Source of the DNA: Thermoleophilia bacterium | GTDB taxonomy: Bacteria; Actinomycetota; Thermoleophilia; Solirubrobacterales; 70-9 | Reading direction: 5' to 3' | Length of the DNA: 64,000 nt | NCBI GenBank assembly: GCA_016650125.1 | Contig: JAENWT010000001.1 | Span: forward strand, 1 to 64,000 | Shown here: positions 21,350 through 41,298 of the stretch, piece by piece | Layout of the letters: each line of letters opens with the position of its first letter | How positions within the stretch are numbered: position 1 is the first letter of the stretch | Position numbers and translations under genes: made by a program | Notes under the pieces: model-generated | The model's database searches: none | What the model was told of the DNA's origin: nothing | Seen by the model: the letters and a program-made list of their open reading frames with translations, nothing else

Positions 21350-21377
21350 TGACCCTCCGGTGAATGCCGGAGGGTCA
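21350..21377. terminator. Bidirectional hairpin between convergent genes
   Basis: The 11-bp perfect arms at 21350-21360 and 21367-21377 enclose a 6-nt loop. The right arm contains the stop codon of the minus-strand DUF2855 gene (21375-21377). No long T tract follows on either side. Confidence 0.75.
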
Positions 21378-22481
21378 GGGCGTGATGTTCCAGCCTTCGG
21401 CGGGATCGACGTTGCCGTCGAGAAACTCGCCGAAAGTTCGCTGCATGTCCTCCGGCCCGTTTCCGGTGCGGATTGTCATCCAGTCCTTGCTTGAATCGAT
21501 GAAGGCTTCCTGATCATTGGCGATCTTCCGCCGGAGTTCAGCGGCTCCCCAATCTTCGTTCCGCTTGGCGACGCGGTTCGGCGCAAAGAAGAAGCCGGGC
21601 TTCGGGCCGGACAGCGGTTCGGCGTCCGGGTCGGGCGCGAGCTCCTCCCAGTCGGCCGCACCGACGACCGTGTCGGCGAGCAGGTTCTCACCGAACCGGT
21701 TGTGGATGCGACCACGCAGGTCGGCGCTGCCACCGAAATCGATGTAGGCGTTCGCTACCGCCGGATCGAGCTGATCGAGGTCGTCGTAGGTGACAACTTC
21801 GTCGTAGAAACCGGTGCCTTCGACGAAGCCCTTGTTGCCGGCTGACGTGAGTCCGACCAGGGTGATCGTTTCGCTGTGATCGCGCTTGAGCATGAAGGCC
21901 AGGCTGAGTGCCGTCTTGCTGGAAGCACTCGAGCAGAGAAGGCGGGTGGCCCCGTAAAACTTCTCCTCCACGATCTCGTCGGCGAGCAGCCAGGAGGTGA
22001 AGAAGAGCGGTCCGAACAGGGCGACGTAAGGCTCGCGGGACTCGCCGTCACCTTCTTCGGGCGTGGTGTAGCCGTAGCGGTTGTAGACCGCCGGAAGCGC
22101 GGAGCGGTGGTCGGCGCCGTCGACGAATCCGGAAGAGGAGACGCCGGTCGGTTCGACCACGAAATGCGTGGACATCGGCATGTATCCGTAGATCCTCTTG
22201 CCGACGGGCAGGTCGTCGTGCTCGGACCGGACCACCTCGCAGTAACCCCAGGCCGGCACCCGGCCGAACTCGGCTTCGCCCGAAGGGAAGAACTCCCAGT
22301 AATTCATCGCGTCGCCCAAGGCGGCATAGGTGACGTTGTTGGCGCTGATCGAGAAGTTGTCGATCCTCAGGAGCGCCTGACCGGGGGCGAGATCGATCTC
22401 GTCGGCGGCGGGCGCCGGCCGGATCGTGCCTTGCCGCAGGTCGTCGCGACGAACCAGGAAATCGTAAGCGGAAGATGTCAT
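21375..22481 (-). CDS. DUF2855 family protein (MDR-like)
   Basis: The 368-residue protein matches DUF2855, a family distantly related to medium-chain dehydrogenases/reductases. Visible blocks are ALLRIDNFSISANNVTYA, YWEFFPSGEAEFGRVPAWGY, the long LLADEIVEEKFYGATRLLCSSASSKTALSLAF region where a nucleotide site would lie, and NGPEDMQRTFGEFLDGNVDPAEGWNI at the end. No zinc ligands are present and the function is unknown. It lies alone between two hairpin-bounded intergenic regions. A short gap separates it from the amine-oxidase-like gene upstream. Confidence 0.82.
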   Translation of the reverse strand: MTSSAYDFLVRRDDLRQGTIRPAPAADEIDLAPGQALLRIDNFSISANNVTYAALGDAMNYWEFFPSGEAEFGRVPAWGYCEVVRSEHDDLPVGKRIYGYMPMSTHFVVEPTGVSSSGFVDGADHRSALPAVYNRYGYTTPEEGDGESREPYVALFGPLFFTSWLLADEIVEEKFYGATRLLCSSASSKTALSLAFMLKRDHSETITLVGLTSAGNKGFVEGTGFYDEVVTYDDLDQLDPAVANAYIDFGGSADLRGRIHNRFGENLLADTVVGAADWEELAPDPDAEPLSGPKPGFFFAPNRVAKRNEDWGAAELRRKIANDQEAFIDSSKDWMTIRTGNGPEDMQRTFGEFLDGNVDPAEGWNITP

Positions 22482-22542: not shown

Positions 22543-23820
22543 TCATCCGGTTCCCACGGCCTGGTCCGCACCGAGTGCTTTCGAAACGGCGCCTGCCGCC
22601 TTGCGGCCGGAGACCAGCGCACCCTGAATGGAAGGGGTCTCGCGATGGTCGCCGCAGATGAAGACACCGGAGGCGAGCAGCGGTGATTCGCCATCGGGTT
22701 GCTGCCGCCCGGGCCTGAAGGCCGGAAGTGCGTGTTCGATGCGGTAAGTCTTGAGGTGCCGCCAGCCGGAGACGGCCGTCTCGCCGAACCAGTCACTGAG
22801 CTGGGTGATGACCGATTCGTGCAGGTCGGCGCGGTCGGTTTCCGGGCCAACCACACTCACCGCGACCAGCGACCGTCCGTTTGGTGCGTAGCCATCGGCG
22901 ACCGAGCTGGGGACGGCGACTTCGTTGATCGGTCTCTTGCCGGAAGGAGAGAGGATCAGCCAGCCTCCGTTGATCTCGGCTTCCGGCGCATCGAAATAAA
23001 GGCAGGTCGTGGTCCGGCTTCCAACCGGGGCGGGCAGCCCGCACAGACCGGCAGCGGCGCTTTCTTCCGTGGCGACGACCACCGCAGCGGCTTCTTCACG
23101 GCTGCCGTCGTCGAGTTCGATCGCCTCGGCTTCGACCGCGGTCACCCGCTGACCGAACCTGACCGAGCCTTCGGGAAGCCGCGCGGCCATCTGGTCGGCA
23201 ATTGCGCCCATGCCGCCGGCCGGCAGGGAGGTGTCTCCGGTGGAGAAGCAGCGGAAGAAGATCTCCATCAGGCGGCTCGAGGTCTCCAGGTCGGGGTCGA
23301 TGAAGACACCGCCGAAGAAAGGCCGGAAGAAGTCCTCGATCATCCCGGTGGTGAAGCCACGTTCCTCCAGCGATGAAATCGCGCTCTTTTCCGGCCGGAG
23401 CAAGATCTCCCGGGGATCGGTCGAAGTCAGGTCCCGCCACATCCGGGCGACGCGGAACTTGTCGGCCAGGTTGCCGACGAGCGAGACGGCGGCGGCCGGT
23501 GCCGAGCGTGGCGACCGCAGGGGATCGGCGAACTTGGCGAATGAATCCTTGATGCGAACGCGGGCTCCGGGGACGAACGAGCCCAGCTGAAGGGCGTCAT
23601 AATCGAGCGTCTTCCTGGCTTCCGGGTAGGCGTTCAGCAGGACCTGGAAACCGCGGTCGAGCTGAAAACCGTCGACGGTGTCGGTGCGGGCCCGGCCTCC
23701 GACCCCGTCCGAGGCCTCGTAGATCCTGAAATCGATTCCGAGCTCCTGGAGCTCGAGCGCACACTTGAGTCCGGCCAGGCCGGCCCCGACGATCGCTACC
23801 GGCGCCTGGCCCTCCGGCAC
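22543..23820 (-). CDS. FAD-dependent amine-oxidase/phytoene-desaturase-like protein
   Basis: The 425-residue flavoprotein has an N-terminal dinucleotide motif VAIVGAGLAGLKCALEL, the GGRARTDTVDGFQLDRGFQV block that follows it in amine oxidases and carotenoid desaturases, and a C-terminal FAD block GVFICGDHRETPSIQGALVSGRKAA. The middle substrate region is divergent. Enzymes of this type desaturate or oxidise isoprenoids, amines or porphyrinogens. No carotenoid cluster is present, so the substrate is open. It overlaps nothing and begins just downstream of a small acidic protein gene on the same strand. Confidence 0.85.
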   Translation of the reverse strand: MPEGQAPVAIVGAGLAGLKCALELQELGIDFRIYEASDGVGGRARTDTVDGFQLDRGFQVLLNAYPEARKTLDYDALQLGSFVPGARVRIKDSFAKFADPLRSPRSAPAAAVSLVGNLADKFRVARMWRDLTSTDPREILLRPEKSAISSLEERGFTTGMIEDFFRPFFGGVFIDPDLETSSRLMEIFFRCFSTGDTSLPAGGMGAIADQMAARLPEGSVRFGQRVTAVEAEAIELDDGSREEAAAVVVATEESAAAGLCGLPAPVGSRTTTCLYFDAPEAEINGGWLILSPSGKRPINEVAVPSSVADGYAPNGRSLVAVSVVGPETDRADLHESVITQLSDWFGETAVSGWRHLKTYRIEHALPAFRPGRQQPDGESPLLASGVFICGDHRETPSIQGALVSGRKAAGAVSKALGADQAVGTG

Positions 23821-23821
23821 C

Positions 23822-24067
23822 TCAGCGGTCCGTGTCTTTCTGTTCGCTCGAGTGCTCTTCGTCGGCTTCGCCGTAAGTCGAGCCGGCGCGTTCGGCTTCG
23901 ACCTTGCCGGCGTCGTATTTGGGATTGCGGCCCTGATCGAAGTTTTCGGCCTGCTCGATCAGTTCTTTCTCCGACTGCTCGAAACCTTCCGCTTCGCCAC
24001 CGCCGGCTTCATCAACCGCCCGGTCTGCTTCGCGCTTTTCCAGATCTTTGTCGTGTTTGAAAGGCAT
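23822..24067 (-). CDS. Small highly charged hydrophilic protein
   Basis: The 81-residue protein is almost entirely Glu, Asp, Lys, Arg and Gly, without a hydrophobic core. It resembles small intrinsically disordered stress proteins, but I recognise no family. Its stop lies only one base from the amine-oxidase-like start, suggesting translational coupling. The frame has coherent high third-position GC, which supports it as real. Confidence 0.55.
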   Translation of the reverse strand: MPFKHDKDLEKREADRAVDEAGGGEAEGFEQSEKELIEQAENFDQGRNPKYDAGKVEAERAGSTYGEADEEHSSEQKDTDR

Positions 24068-24121
24068 GGAGGGAGAGTACCCGTCGGCCGGGCCGGAAAC
24101 GAATCTCCCCGGCCGGGCAGG

Positions 24122-25954
24122 TCAGATCGACCAGTACGCGCCGATCCGGTCGGTGAACTGACGCGGCTTCTCGGCGTACACCCGTCGCCCCAGGGGCAGG
24201 GCCTCGTCGAGCAGCTCGATCTGGCGGGCGATCGCGATCGCTTTCAGTCCGGCAACCGACGGATCCGTGGCGTGACCGGTCTCGAGTTCGTCGAGCAGGA
24301 CCGAGAGGTCGTTGTAGGAGCCGAGCAGCTCGGCCAGGTGCCCGATCTCCTTCACCGGCGCCTTCAACCCCTCCTTCCAGGAATTGCGCAGCAGCCGCAG
24401 CTGGTACCAGAGGTCCTTGACCCGTTTACGCCACTCGTGGACGGTGGCCGACGTCGCTTCGGCTTCAACGTCCTCGAGCCGCCGCTGCCCGTCGCGATAG
24501 GTCCGCCGCAGGCCGCCGGCGAAGAGCTGCCAGTCGGATTCGGAGAGGTTCCAGTCATCGATCAGGCGCCCGCCTTCCTCGATGGTTCTTGCCGCCCGCT
24601 CGAGGCGGGAGTCGATCGCCGGGCCGCCCGATTCCCGGTCCCGGTCGCGTCGCGCTTCGAGCTCGGCGATCAGCGGAGCGGCCGCGGCCGCCTGGTCCGG
24701 TTGCGAGGCGATCAGGGCTTCGACCGTCTCGACCAGGACTTCGCTGTCGCGCGACTCGGAGAGCAGCCGGGCGGCGTCGCGGTACCGGCGGTTCTCGGTC
24801 CGGAAGGTCTCCTTGCCGACGTTCTCCCGGACGAGCCGCAGCACGGCCCTCATTTTCTTAATGTCCTTGCGTGCTTCGTGGATCGAATCGGCCCGGGCCG
24901 CCGGATCGGAGGAGCGCAGGTTCTTCAGCGCCGACTCGACCCGGCTGTGGGCGACCCGCCGGACCTCGCTGGCCGGGTTCTCCCGGCCGAGCCGGTACCC
25001 GGGGTCCCGGATCTCGTTCTCCGTCGGCTCTCCGGCCGGGCTGATGCTGATCGTGAACCGGGAGACGTCCGATTCGCCTGGTTCGACCGAGTTCAGGTCA
25101 CGACCGCTGACCAGGGCATCGGTCGGGGCTTTCATCGGCTCGAAACAGACCACGTCCTCGCCGGCCGGCGCGAAAATCTGGGCGGCGCCGTAGCCCCGGT
25201 CGAGCCGCACGGTGATGCGGCGGCGATCGTCGGCCACCGAGAACCCGGCGCCCGCTTCGATACCCGTGAAGCCGTCGTCCCACGACCGGTCGCCGAGGGT
25301 CTCGGTGCCGGCTTCGAGGCTGTTCCCCCCGGCCGTCGGGATGCCGCGCTCGTCGAACTCGAGGGCCTTCCGGGCCGGCAGCTCGATCTGCCAGCTCGAG
25401 CGGTCCCCTCCGGGCAGGCTCAGGTAAGGATGGAAACCGAAGGCCAGGGGCATCGGTCCGTCGCCGGTGTTGACCACGGTGGCCGTCACGGTGAGCGTTT
25501 CACCCTCGATCTTCATCTCGAGTTCGAGGCGGTGGGGGAAAGGGAAGCTCGCCAGCAGCTCGGGGTGGGCGCCGAAGTCAAGCGAGGCGGCCAGCCGCGC
25601 GTCCTCCCGCTGGTCCCCGGCCGAAGCGTCTTCGATGATCCAGAGCGGGGACGCCGCCAGGGTTCCGTGGATCGCGAGGCCGTTGTCGTCGCGACGCACT
25701 CCGAAAGCATCCGGTTCGATCCTGACCGCCCGGCCGCCGAACTCGTACTCGTTCCGCGACAGCCGGTTCGCCCACGGGTAGAGGATCGGCAGGCCCATGG
25801 TCTTGCCCGACTCGACGTAACTCTCGAGCCCGCGGCGCTGGCCGAGGAGTTCTTCGCCTTCGTGGCGCAGGGACACCCCGATCATTCCGGCTTCCGGGAC
25901 GAAGGTCGCCGAGAGGCCGCTGCCGGATTCGATGCGGATTGCGCGCAGGCTCAT
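24122..25954 (-). CDS. Aldose 1-epimerase fused to a CHAD domain
   Basis: The 610-residue protein has two complete modules. Residues 1-310 form an aldose 1-epimerase (mutarotase): PWANRLSRNEYEFGG, His96 in GLAIHG, catalytic-type His175 in FGFHPYLSL and Glu272 in CFEPMKAPTDAL. From about 319 a CHAD domain begins (GYRLGRENPASEVRRVAHSRVESALKNLR) with its two basic helices, SIHEARKDIKKMRAVLRLV and VHEWRKRVKDLWYQLRLL. CHAD domains bind inorganic polyphosphate through such Lys/Arg helices. There is no stop or frame change at the junction. The protein is probably cytoplasmic. The next gene, divergent, is a fructosamine kinase, hinting at sugar damage or storage metabolism. I infer polyphosphate targeting or regulation of a sugar epimerase. 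Confidence 0.88.
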   Translation of the reverse strand: MSLRAIRIESGSGLSATFVPEAGMIGVSLRHEGEELLGQRRGLESYVESGKTMGLPILYPWANRLSRNEYEFGGRAVRIEPDAFGVRRDDNGLAIHGTLAASPLWIIEDASAGDQREDARLAASLDFGAHPELLASFPFPHRLELEMKIEGETLTVTATVVNTGDGPMPLAFGFHPYLSLPGGDRSSWQIELPARKALEFDERGIPTAGGNSLEAGTETLGDRSWDDGFTGIEAGAGFSVADDRRRITVRLDRGYGAAQIFAPAGEDVVCFEPMKAPTDALVSGRDLNSVEPGESDVSRFTISISPAGEPTENEIRDPGYRLGRENPASEVRRVAHSRVESALKNLRSSDPAARADSIHEARKDIKKMRAVLRLVRENVGKETFRTENRRYRDAARLLSESRDSEVLVETVEALIASQPDQAAAAAPLIAELEARRDRDRESGGPAIDSRLERAARTIEEGGRLIDDWNLSESDWQLFAGGLRRTYRDGQRRLEDVEAEATSATVHEWRKRVKDLWYQLRLLRNSWKEGLKAPVKEIGHLAELLGSYNDLSVLLDELETGHATDPSVAGLKAIAIARQIELLDEALPLGRRVYAEKPRQFTDRIGAYWSI

Positions 25955-26037
25955 GCCCGGATGATCGCGAATCCCGGAGCCGGTGGCGTAAACGAACCGG
26001 TAACGCCGGTGACGGGTTTAATCTTCAAGGGATGGAG

Positions 26038-26958
26038 ATGAAGGAAAGTTGCGGACGGGAGACCGGTGAATCGCCGGGTCTGTTCGAGGCTGCGGCCCGG
26101 GTCGCGGGCAGCCGGCTGGAGGACGTGGCCGCCTGCGCGGGCGGAGACATCAACCAGGCCTGGAAGTTGAAGCTGGGCGACGGGACGGAGGCTTTCCTGA
26201 AGAGCCGGCCTGGCGCACCGGCGCGAGAGTTTGAAGTCGAGGCCGCCGGACTCGAGTGGCTGGCCGCGGTCGGCGAGCTGCCAGTGCCGAAAGTCCTCGG
26301 AGTAGTGCCGGGAGACCAGCCCGGGCTGCTGCTCGGATGGATCGAACCGGGCGGGCGGCTCGATTCAGCCGGTGAGGCCACATTCGGTCAGGGCCTGGCC
26401 CGGATCCACCGGCAGGAGGCCGACGGTTTCGGCACGCTTCCTGACGGAGCACCAGAGGGCGACCTGATGGTCGGCCCAGTCAGCCTCGGAAATTTCGTCG
26501 ATCAGGACACCAGGGACGGGTTCGGCCCCTGCTATGCGCGCCGCCTCGAGGGCCTCGTCGCGCAGGCGCTCGACTGCGCCGCGATCGACTCCGAACAGGC
26601 TGCCGGCATCGGAAAGCTGTGCGGACGGATCGAGGAGTTCACCGGACCGCCCGAGCCGCCGGCGCGGACCCATGGCGACCTTTGGTCGGGCAACGTCCTG
26701 GTCGGGGCTGACGGTCGGCCCTGGCTGATCGACCCAGCCGCGCATGGCGCCCACCGCGAGCTTGACCTGGCGATGCTCGCCCTCTTCGGTGCCCCGTCCG
26801 ACCGTTTCATGGGGGCGTACCGCGAGGAGTTTCCGCTCGCCCCGGACCATCAGGAACGGGTCGAGCTCTGGCAGATCCAGCCACTCCTGATCCACGCGAT
26901 CCTCTTCGACGGTTCCTACGGCGAGGCTGCCGCCCGAGCCGCCGGCCGATACCTCTGA
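26038..26958 (+). CDS. Fructosamine kinase family protein
   Basis: This small-molecule kinase phosphorylates protein- or amine-bound ketosugars for deglycation. The 306-residue protein shows the family blocks GGDINQAWKLKLGDG, AFLKSR (ATP-binding Lys), the catalytic THGDLWSGNVLVGADGRPWLIDPAAHGAHRELDLAML and the C-terminal ERVELWQIQPLLIHAILF. I chose ATG 26038, seven bases after AAGG; ATG 26032 is an alternative. It is divergent from the epimerase-CHAD gene with about 80 bases between, so both may share a control region. Confidence 0.9.
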   Translation: MKESCGRETGESPGLFEAAARVAGSRLEDVAACAGGDINQAWKLKLGDGTEAFLKSRPGAPAREFEVEAAGLEWLAAVGELPVPKVLGVVPGDQPGLLLGWIEPGGRLDSAGEATFGQGLARIHRQEADGFGTLPDGAPEGDLMVGPVSLGNFVDQDTRDGFGPCYARRLEGLVAQALDCAAIDSEQAAGIGKLCGRIEEFTGPPEPPARTHGDLWSGNVLVGADGRPWLIDPAAHGAHRELDLAMLALFGAPSDRFMGAYREEFPLAPDHQERVELWQIQPLLIHAILFDGSYGEAAARAAGRYL

Positions 26959-39220: not shown

Positions 39221-39903
39221 ATGTCCGGCTCGGTTGGATCTCATTTGAAAGGCCAGGAAGTCGTGATCGTGGAGGCGGCGCGAACCCCGATCGGCCGTGG
39301 CCATCCGGCCAAGGGCTGGTATCGCGACCTGCACCCGAACGAGCTGCTCGGCGCCACCTACTCCGCCGTGCTCGAGCGTTCCGGAATCGATCCGGCGCTG
39401 GTCGGCGACGTCGTCGCCGGTTCGGTGACGCAGGTCGGCGAGCAGTCGAACAACATCGCGCGCAACGCCTGGCTTCAGGCCGGACTCCCCCTGACTACGC
39501 CGGCGGCGACGATCGACCGTCAGTGCGGATCGGCCCAGACCGCGGTCAGCTTCGCCGGACCGACCAGGGCATCCGCCCGGGCACGACTCCGGAAATCCTC
39601 GCCGGGCTGAAGCCGGCCTTCAGCGAGGATGGCACCGTAACCGCCGGCAACGCCTCGCAGATCTCCGACGGCGCGGCGGCGGTGCTGCTGATGAGCCGCG
39701 AGAAGGCGGACGAGCTCGGGCTGAAGCCGCGGGCCCGGATCGTCGACGCGTTGACCGTCGGCGTCGACCCGGTGATGATGCTGACCGGCCCGATTCCTGC
39801 GACCAGGCAACTGCTCGACCGCAACGGGCTCGCGATCAGTGACCTCGACCTGATCGAGATCAACGAAGCCTTCGCTTCGGTGCTCGGCGACATCAGGGTT
39901 AGG
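39221..39903 (+). pseudogene. Thiolase remnant with internal deletion and frameshift
   Basis: The N-terminal part is a good acetyl-CoA acetyltransferase-type thiolase (VIVEAARTPIGRGHPAKG, VGEQSNNIARNAWLQAGLP, and the nucleophile region [15 protein letters not shown]). At about 39545 the reading frame changes, and sequence resumes in the +2 frame with [45 protein letters not shown]. About 130 residues of the middle are missing. It then stops at [16 protein letters not shown] (about 39893), lacking the GHP..G loop with the second active Cys, and runs in frame into the DUF2252 gene. A GGAGG site at 39211-39215 precedes the start. Two deletions make it non-functional. Confidence 0.85.
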
Positions 39904-41298
39904 ATGCTGTCGATGGCTGAGCCCGGTTCTTTCCCGACTCTTGATGACGATCGCAAGCGTGGTCGTGCCCTTCGTTCCGAGATCAAGCGTTCGGCCCACG
40001 GGAAGTTCCATCCCACCCAGCGGGACCCGGTCTGGATAATCGAGCAGCAGAACGAGTCACGAATTCAGCAGCTGGTGCCCGTCCGAATCGGTCGCATGCT
40101 TCAGTCGCGTTTCGCTTACTACCGCGGTACGGCCGCTACCATGGCCTTCGACCTTTCGAAGGAGTCGAATACAGATGTCAATGTGATCATCTGCGGTGAT
40201 GCCCATGCGGCCAACTTCGGACTCTTCGCCGCTCCGGACCGGCGCGTGCTCTTCGACCTGAACGACTTCGACGAAGCTGGCCCCGGTCCATGGGAGTGGG
40301 ACGTAAAGCGCCTCGTCACCAGTATCGAGGTCGGATACCGGCATCGCGGTTTCACCCCGGAGCAGGCCGAAGCCGCTTGCCTGACCGCGGCCCGCACATA
40401 CCGGACCAGGCTCGCCGAACTGACCGAGCTCTCGACTGCCGAGCGCTACTTCAAGCGGGCAGAGATGGATGACATCAGCGCGATGGCTGTCGATGAGCGC
40501 GGCCGCAAGCTCATCGCCAAGACCGTCAAGAAGGCCTCGCGCAGGACTTCCGAACAAGTGCTCGGCAAGATCGTCACCACCACTGAGGACGGAAAGCCTC
40601 GAATCCAGGACCAGCCGCCGATCCTCCAGCACTTTGAGGACGTGATGTCCCGGGACGAGATCCAGCAGGTCTACGACCGGTACCTGCAGACCCTCCGTCC
40701 AGACATCGCCCTCCTGCTTTCGAACTTCGAGCTAGTCGACTATGCCCTTCGGGTGGTCGGAGTGGGAAGCGTCGGGACAAGGTGCGCGATCCTGCTGCTG
40801 ATAGGTCCCCAGGGCGAGCCGCTCTTCATCCAACTCAAGGAAGCGGACAAGTCGGTTCTCGAAACCTGGGGTGGCGTCCCGCCGGCACCTCTCGCCGGAC
40901 TCGGTGGTAGTCACGAGCCGAGCAACGGCTACAGGGTGGTTTCTACTCAGCAAGTACTCCAGGCGGCATCCGACCCTTTCCTCGGCTGGATCGGGGACGT
41001 ACGCGGCTTCGACTACTACGTGCGGCAATTCCGTGACATGAAGGGCTCGGCTGACCTCGACACCCTGACCGTCACCCAGTTCGAGAACTACGGGGCGATC
41101 TGTGGCGCCCTGCTCGCTCGCGCCCACAGCCAGAGCCCCGGCTGGGCGGCAATCACGGGCTACCTCGGTAACTCCGACTCCTTCGACCGTGCGGTCGCAA
41201 GCTGGAGCAAGTCCTATGCCGACCAGGCCGAGCGGGACTTCGAGGCGCTGGAGCAGGCCGTCAAGTCCGGCAGGTTGCCGGCCGAGACCGGGGTCTAG
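39904..41298 (+). CDS. DUF2252 family protein
   Basis: The 464-residue protein matches DUF2252 (kinase-fold-like, uncharacterised): [95 protein letters not shown], and [12 protein letters not shown] near the end. The GDAHAANFG and FDLNDFDE blocks resemble kinase catalytic-loop motifs. The open frame extends without a stop into the thiolase remnant, so a fused polypeptide could arise if the upstream frame were translated. I chose ATG 39904; ATG 39913 is possible. The gene ends 4 bp inside the TetR gene on the other strand. Confidence 0.85.

What the first reader, a model, noticed from the sequence alone, without database searches (positions are those of the whole stretch)
24122..25954. Aldose 1-epimerase fused to a CHAD (polyphosphate-binding) domain
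Both modules are complete and retain key residues: epimerase His96, His175 and Glu272, and the two basic CHAD helices. CHAD domains are known polyphosphate binders, but I know of no described coupling to a mutarotase. The arrangement suggests a sugar enzyme recruited to polyphosphate granules, or controlled by polyphosphate, perhaps linked to polyphosphate- or storage-sugar metabolism.
Basis: partly seen in the sequence, partly recalled or inferred. Interest (0 to 1): 0.75.

Follow-up and report, generated by a model that had tools for sequence, protein, structure and literature searches.

The report
Sugar mutarotase fused to polyphosphate-binding domain
In a few closely related actinobacteria (Solirubrobacterales), an enzyme that flips sugars between their alpha and beta forms is built into one protein with a domain known to bind polyphosphate; the fusion is real and kept by selection, but was found in only one genus and its purpose is untested.

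Summary
Window 24122-25954 (minus strand) is one 610-aa reading frame: an intact aldose 1-epimerase (Pfam E 3e-22; modelled fold matches B. subtilis GalM, Z 34) plus an intact long CHAD domain (Pfam E 1e-33; matches the CtCHAD-polyphosphate structure 6QVA, Z 21 over 283 residues). It is not an assembly error. Four other genomes of the genus carry the same single-ORF fusion (53-55% identical), with linkers of different length, and both halves show purifying selection.

It is a local innovation. No fusion outside the genus was found in 50 family, 399 class-level or 396 phylum-level genomes. Trees are consistent with one origin; G002's lone CHAD nests inside the fused clade, so it probably lost its epimerase half. 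Several outside relatives of the CHAD half carry an N-terminal triphosphate-tunnel (TTM/CYTH) domain, so the sugar enzyme may have taken a polyP enzyme's place. The genome can make polyP (PPX-CHAD-PPK1 cluster, PPK2).

Best explanation: a mutarotase tethered to polyphosphate, moderately likely and untested. Against a specific coupling: no polyP glucokinase was recognised, no conserved operon, and unlinked genes elsewhere. New domain combination of two known families; moderate interest.

The parts
24122..25954 (-). Epimerase-CHAD fusion gene, 610 aa
25043..25954 (-). N-terminal aldose 1-epimerase (mutarotase) domain, residues 1-304; catalytic H96, H175, E272; also invariant R64, D226
   Evidence: Pfam; invariance; fold
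24989..25042 (-). Interdomain linker, residues 305-322; variable in length and sequence among homologues, low model confidence at 309-325
24125..24988 (-). C-terminal long CHAD domain, residues 323-610; H359, R362, K366, R402, Y517 at positions of CtCHAD polyP contacts
   Evidence: Pfam; HMM alignment to 6QV7/6QVA; fold
26032..26958 (+). Divergently transcribed fructosamine-kinase family gene; same pairing in G003 and G017; no match in G004, G008 and G002
23822..24067 (-). Small charged 81-aa predicted protein just downstream, no Pfam match
22543..23820 (-). Downstream FAD-dependent amine-oxidase-like oxidoreductase; near the fusion also in G017 and G008
21375..22481 (-). Downstream DUF2855 gene; near the fusion in G004 and G008 and near the lone CHAD in G002, marking the shared locus

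Best explanation
A genuine two-domain protein in which an aldose 1-epimerase is tethered by a flexible linker to a polyphosphate-binding CHAD domain. Shown here: one reading frame, both folds intact, catalytic residues and most polyP-contact residues kept, purifying selection on both halves, restriction to one clade of one genus, and PPK1/PPX/PPK2 in the same genome. Inferred: the CHAD half binds polyP and holds the mutarotase at polyP granules or chains, where it speeds alpha/beta interconversion of a free aldose (most likely glucose or galactose). The gain may be locality or stability under stress rather than direct chemistry on polyP, since no polyP-using sugar kinase was recognised. Inferred origin: an epimerase of the Conexibacter/Mycobacterium type fused with a CHAD gene; several outside relatives of that CHAD carry a triphosphate-tunnel (TTM/CYTH) domain at the N-terminus, so a sugar enzyme now sits where a polyP/triphosphate enzyme commonly sits.
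For: Single ORF, two complete Pfam domains. Five genomes with the fusion, linkers differing in length and sequence. Codon positions 1 and 2 change less than position 3 in both halves; the linker is relaxed. Model: epimerase Z 34.1 / 2.4 A / 294 residues to 3MWX; CHAD Z 20.8 / 3.6 A / 283 residues to 6QVA, the polyP complex. HMM alignment places H359, R362, K366, R402 and Y517 on CtCHAD H253, R256, R260, R296 and Y419, residues whose mutation weakens polyP binding (PMC6537752). Catalytic His/His/Glu equals the mutarotase triad (PMC5902678). PPX, CHAD and PPK1 lie together at G000:C22, PPK2 at C8. Fused epimerases form one clade (100/99). CHAD tree and TTM-CHAD relatives.
Against: CtCHAD R418 is replaced by Trp (W516), and of the distal contacts only part is kept. 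The CHAD half is not strongly basic overall (pI 5.5-9.3 among the five). No polyP glucokinase by curated cut-off. No conserved operon with polyP or sugar genes, and on single-contig relatives (G237, G058, G299 C1) epimerase and CHAD genes are far apart. G002 appears to have dropped the epimerase half but kept CHAD. Nothing biochemical was tested.
Confidence: 0.5

Rival explanations
1. Neutral or nearly neutral fusion: both domains work independently, the CHAD half does its usual polyP-associated job and the mutarotase merely rides along, with no coupling of activities.
For: Fusion is confined to one genus in the samples searched; one member, G002, seems to have lost the epimerase half without losing CHAD; linker is unconserved; the genes are unlinked elsewhere.
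Against: The fusion has persisted across five lineages diverged to about 54% identity with both halves under constraint; no lineage was found with the two parts merely split in place.
Confidence: 0.28
2. Allosteric control: polyP binding to the CHAD half switches the mutarotase on or off, making sugar anomer exchange respond to polyP level.
For: Precedent: the CHAD domain of ygiF enhances the activity of its attached polyPase (PMC6537752).
Against: The linker is variable and predicted with low confidence, so a fixed interface is not indicated; the ygiF effect concerns an enzyme whose substrate is itself a phosphate polymer.
Confidence: 0.12
3. The CHAD half no longer binds polyP and serves as a dimerisation or stability module, or has a different anionic ligand.
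For: Near-neutral net charge, R418 to Trp change; CtCHAD forms dimers in solution (PMC6537752).
Against: H359, R362, K366, R402 and Y517 and the RKRVK motif are invariant across the ten fused and non-fused relatives aligned.
Confidence: 0.08
4. Assembly or annotation artefact joining two genes.
For: Fragmented draft genomes throughout.
Against: Same junction type in five genomes with different linker sequences, no stops or internal starts, uniform codon usage.
Confidence: 0.02

Closest known systems
TTM(CYTH)-CHAD proteins (E. coli ygiF type)
   Same: N-terminal enzyme domain followed by a C-terminal CHAD domain; outside relatives of this CHAD half (G034, G020) have this architecture.
   Different: Here the N-terminal enzyme is an aldose epimerase, not a triphosphate-tunnel enzyme, and its expected substrate is not a phosphate polymer.
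Galactose mutarotase / aldose 1-epimerase (GalM, PF01263; B. subtilis 4BZE/3MWX)
   Same: Fold over the whole domain, His/His/Glu catalytic residues.
   Different: Only about 23-25% identical to the nearest solved members; carries a CHAD domain.
Standalone actinobacterial epimerases of Mycobacterium and Conexibacter
   Same: About 48-58% identical to the N-terminal half; same part of the tree.
   Different: No CHAD domain, different gene neighbourhood (flavohaemoprotein/ferredoxin-reductase-like gene upstream, dnaJ nearby in mycobacteria).
Yeast Gal10 (UDP-galactose 4-epimerase fused to mutarotase)
   Same: Precedent for a mutarotase fused into a larger protein (1Z45).
   Different: Partner is a pathway enzyme, mutarotase is C-terminal, no polyP module.

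Membership tests
Aldose 1-epimerase (PF01263) | Profile match over nearly the full domain | tested here: met
   79.6 bits against cut-off 27, profile 3-294 of 299
Aldose 1-epimerase (PF01263) | Catalytic His, His and Glu | tested here: met
   H96, H175, E272 invariant; triad per PMC5902678
Aldose 1-epimerase (PF01263) | Galactose-mutarotase beta-sandwich fold | tested here: met
   Z 34.1, 2.4 A, 294 residues to 3MWX
Aldose 1-epimerase (PF01263) | Mutarotation of an aldose | not testable with these tools
   needs an enzyme assay
CHAD domain (PF05235) | Profile match over nearly the full domain | tested here: met
   117.3 bits against 25.6, profile 3-227 of 228
CHAD domain (PF05235) | Two four-helix bundles | tested here: met
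   All-helical 322-608, Z 20.8, 3.6 A, 283 residues to 6QVA; model confidence moderate (block pLDDT about 60-89)
CHAD domain (PF05235) | Basic polyP-contact residues of CtCHAD | tested here: met
   H253, R256, R260 (as Lys), R296, Y419 kept; R418 replaced by Trp (positions counted by hand along the printed alignment)
CHAD domain (PF05235) | Binding of polyphosphate | not testable with these tools
   needs a binding assay
TTM(CYTH)-CHAD (ygiF type) | N-terminal triphosphate-tunnel domain | tested here: not met
   N-terminal half is aldose epimerase
YihR-type sugar mutarotase (NCBIfam PRK15172) | Score above the curated cut-off | tested here: not met
   47 bits against 251
Hexose-6-phosphate mutarotase (YMR099c, YeaD) | Closest structural match lies in this subgroup | tested here: inconclusive
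   Z 26.2 (2CIQ) and 24.4 (2HTB) against 34 for GalM; substrate not tested

The most novel reading that the evidence does not exclude
A sugar mutarotase is physically tethered to, or controlled by, polyphosphate: a case of polyP addressing an enzyme of free-sugar metabolism through a CHAD domain, arisen by replacing the TTM enzyme of a TTM-CHAD protein.
Probability: 0.35. Interest if true: 0.6.

Novelty: new variant of a known kind. Interest (0 to 1): 0.42.

Why it matters
CHAD domains are known alone or with enzymes that act on phosphate polymers. A natural fusion to an unrelated sugar enzyme would suggest that evolution uses CHAD as a general polyP address tag, much as Lorenzo-Orts et al. 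proposed for engineering (PMC6537752), and would open a concrete test of whether polyP granules host sugar metabolism.

Tried and rejected
PolyP-glucokinase coupling (mutarotase feeding a polyP-dependent kinase): the three ROK kinases of G000 score at most 68 bits on NF045942 (cut-off 250), so not supported. Conserved operon: neighbours differ among the five fused genomes (fructosamine kinase in three, PucR-type regulator plus enoyl-CoA hydratase in two). Independent fusions elsewhere: none in class and phylum samples, plasmids or viral contigs; the class and phylum searches scored only about three candidates per genome, so a distant fusion of other subfamilies could be missed. Epimerase remnant beside the lone CHAD of G002: none significant. 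G002's own epimerase belongs to the family's usual lineage, so it is not the lost half moved elsewhere. Pfam CYTH did not fire on the TTM-CHAD relatives, but NE1496 (2FBL) matched at E 3e-32. Foldseek hits of the whole model to YidC and to a TPR protein are long, high-rmsd matches and were not followed.

Full report
OBSERVATION. The minus strand of 24122-25954 is one open frame of 610 codons. Pfam finds Aldose_epim at residues 6-298 and CHAD at 339-557, both near full length. The overlapping 758-codon plus-strand ORF (23765-26041) is most likely a by-product of high GC: GC3 is 0.88 in the minus-strand frame, and a simple codon-position gene picker preferred that frame. No start codon occurs between residues 296 and 345, so one polypeptide is expected.

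NOT AN ARTEFACT. A search of relatives found the same fusion in four more genomes of the genus: G003, G004, G008 and G017, in single frames without stops. A locus with the same coordinates as G017's copy is public as CALEMO010000221.1, an uncultured Solirubrobacterales bacterium. The proteins are 53-55% identical to the window's; the two domains align throughout, whereas the linker varies strongly in length and sequence. In all ten pairs, first and second codon positions differ less than third positions in both halves, but not consistently in the linker, the mark of purifying selection on both domains.

ANATOMY. AlphaFold2 (mean pLDDT 80, pTM 0.55; the alignment had only two CHAD rows, so the CHAD part and the relative placing of the domains are less certain) gives a beta-sandwich up to about 306, a low-confidence stretch at 309-325, and helices from 327 to 606. 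The first part matches GalM-type mutarotases (3MWX, Z 34.1, 2.4 A, 294 residues) better than hexose-6-phosphate mutarotases (2CIQ, Z 26.2, 2.8 A, 262 residues); the second matches CtCHAD with polyP (6QVA, Z 20.8, 3.6 A, 283 residues). H96, H175 and E272 match the mutarotase triad described in PMC5902678. A profile of ten related CHADs aligns with CtCHAD (E 9e-8); counting by hand along that alignment, CtCHAD H253, R256, R260, R296 and Y419 correspond to H359, R362, K366, R402 and Y517, while R418 is W516. Mutating these CtCHAD positions weakens polyP binding (PMC6537752). Overall charge of the CHAD half is near neutral, which tempers the claim.

DISTRIBUTION AND ORIGIN. The fusion occurs in 5 of 18 genomes of the genus and in none of the other 32 of the family, and no fusion outside the genus was seen among 399 genomes sampled from the class or 396 from the phylum. 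Elsewhere both genes may exist but apart; in G237, G058 and G299 they lie hundreds of kilobases or more apart on the same contig. The five fused epimerases form one clade (100/99), grouped with Conexibacter and Mycobacterium standalone epimerases and apart from the epimerase of the rest of the family, including G002's own. In the CHAD tree G002's standalone CHAD is sister to fused G004 with full support, and it lies near the same DUF2855 gene; the simplest reading is that G002 lost the epimerase half, of which no significant remnant is left. Related CHADs outside the clade (G034, G020) carry an N-terminal domain matching NE1496/2FBL at E 3e-32; that NE1496 is a TTM/CYTH protein is from my own knowledge. 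Whether the ancestor was a TTM-CHAD or a lone CHAD is not settled, as G031 and G026 show no recognisable TTM domain.

CONTEXT. The genome has a PPX-CHAD-PPK1 cluster with a second CHAD (G000:C22) and a PPK2 (C8), so polyP is likely made. The local neighbourhood (fructosamine kinase, FAD oxidoreductase, DUF2855) is only partly shared and does not name a pathway. None of three ROK sugar kinases is a polyP glucokinase by the curated model, which weakens the most attractive mechanistic story.

MECHANISM. Most likely (0.5) the CHAD half tethers the mutarotase to polyP. Shown: anatomy, conservation, polyP-making capacity. Inferred: binding, place in the cell, substrate, benefit. Main rival (0.28): an uncoupled fusion of two independently working domains. 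Allosteric control by polyP (0.12) has a precedent in ygiF but no direct support here.

NOVELTY. Both families are well known. I found no description of this combination in the open literature held here; domain-architecture databases could not be searched, so absence from them is not shown. I call it a new variant of a known kind (enzyme-CHAD proteins), of moderate interest.

Noticed in passing
window 39523-41298 (+): One ORF joins a roughly 113-residue thiolase piece (end of Thiolase_N, start of Thiolase_C, about 75% identical to the thiolase at G000:C3) to a DUF2252 protein; the piece is absent from the DUF2252 relatives of the genus, so it is probably a partial duplication upstream of the true DUF2252 start.
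   Followed up: partly
G001:C48 and C70, G006:C80, G009:C7, G010:C121, G011:C43, G013:C160: In seven places of six genomes of the genus a standalone CHAD gene of a second clade lies close to, and on the same strand as, a thiolase gene, perhaps a conserved thiolase-CHAD pair (compare).
   Followed up: no
L115 (G034), L116 (G020): TTM-CHAD proteins whose N-terminal part matches NE1496 (2FBL) at E 3e-32 but is not recognised by Pfam at E 0.001.
   Followed up: partly
L056: Mycolicibacterium moriokaense carries two tandem copies of the standalone epimerase.
   Followed up: no
window 23822-24067 (-): Highly charged 81-aa predicted protein between the fusion gene and the FAD oxidoreductase, no Pfam match.
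   Followed up: no
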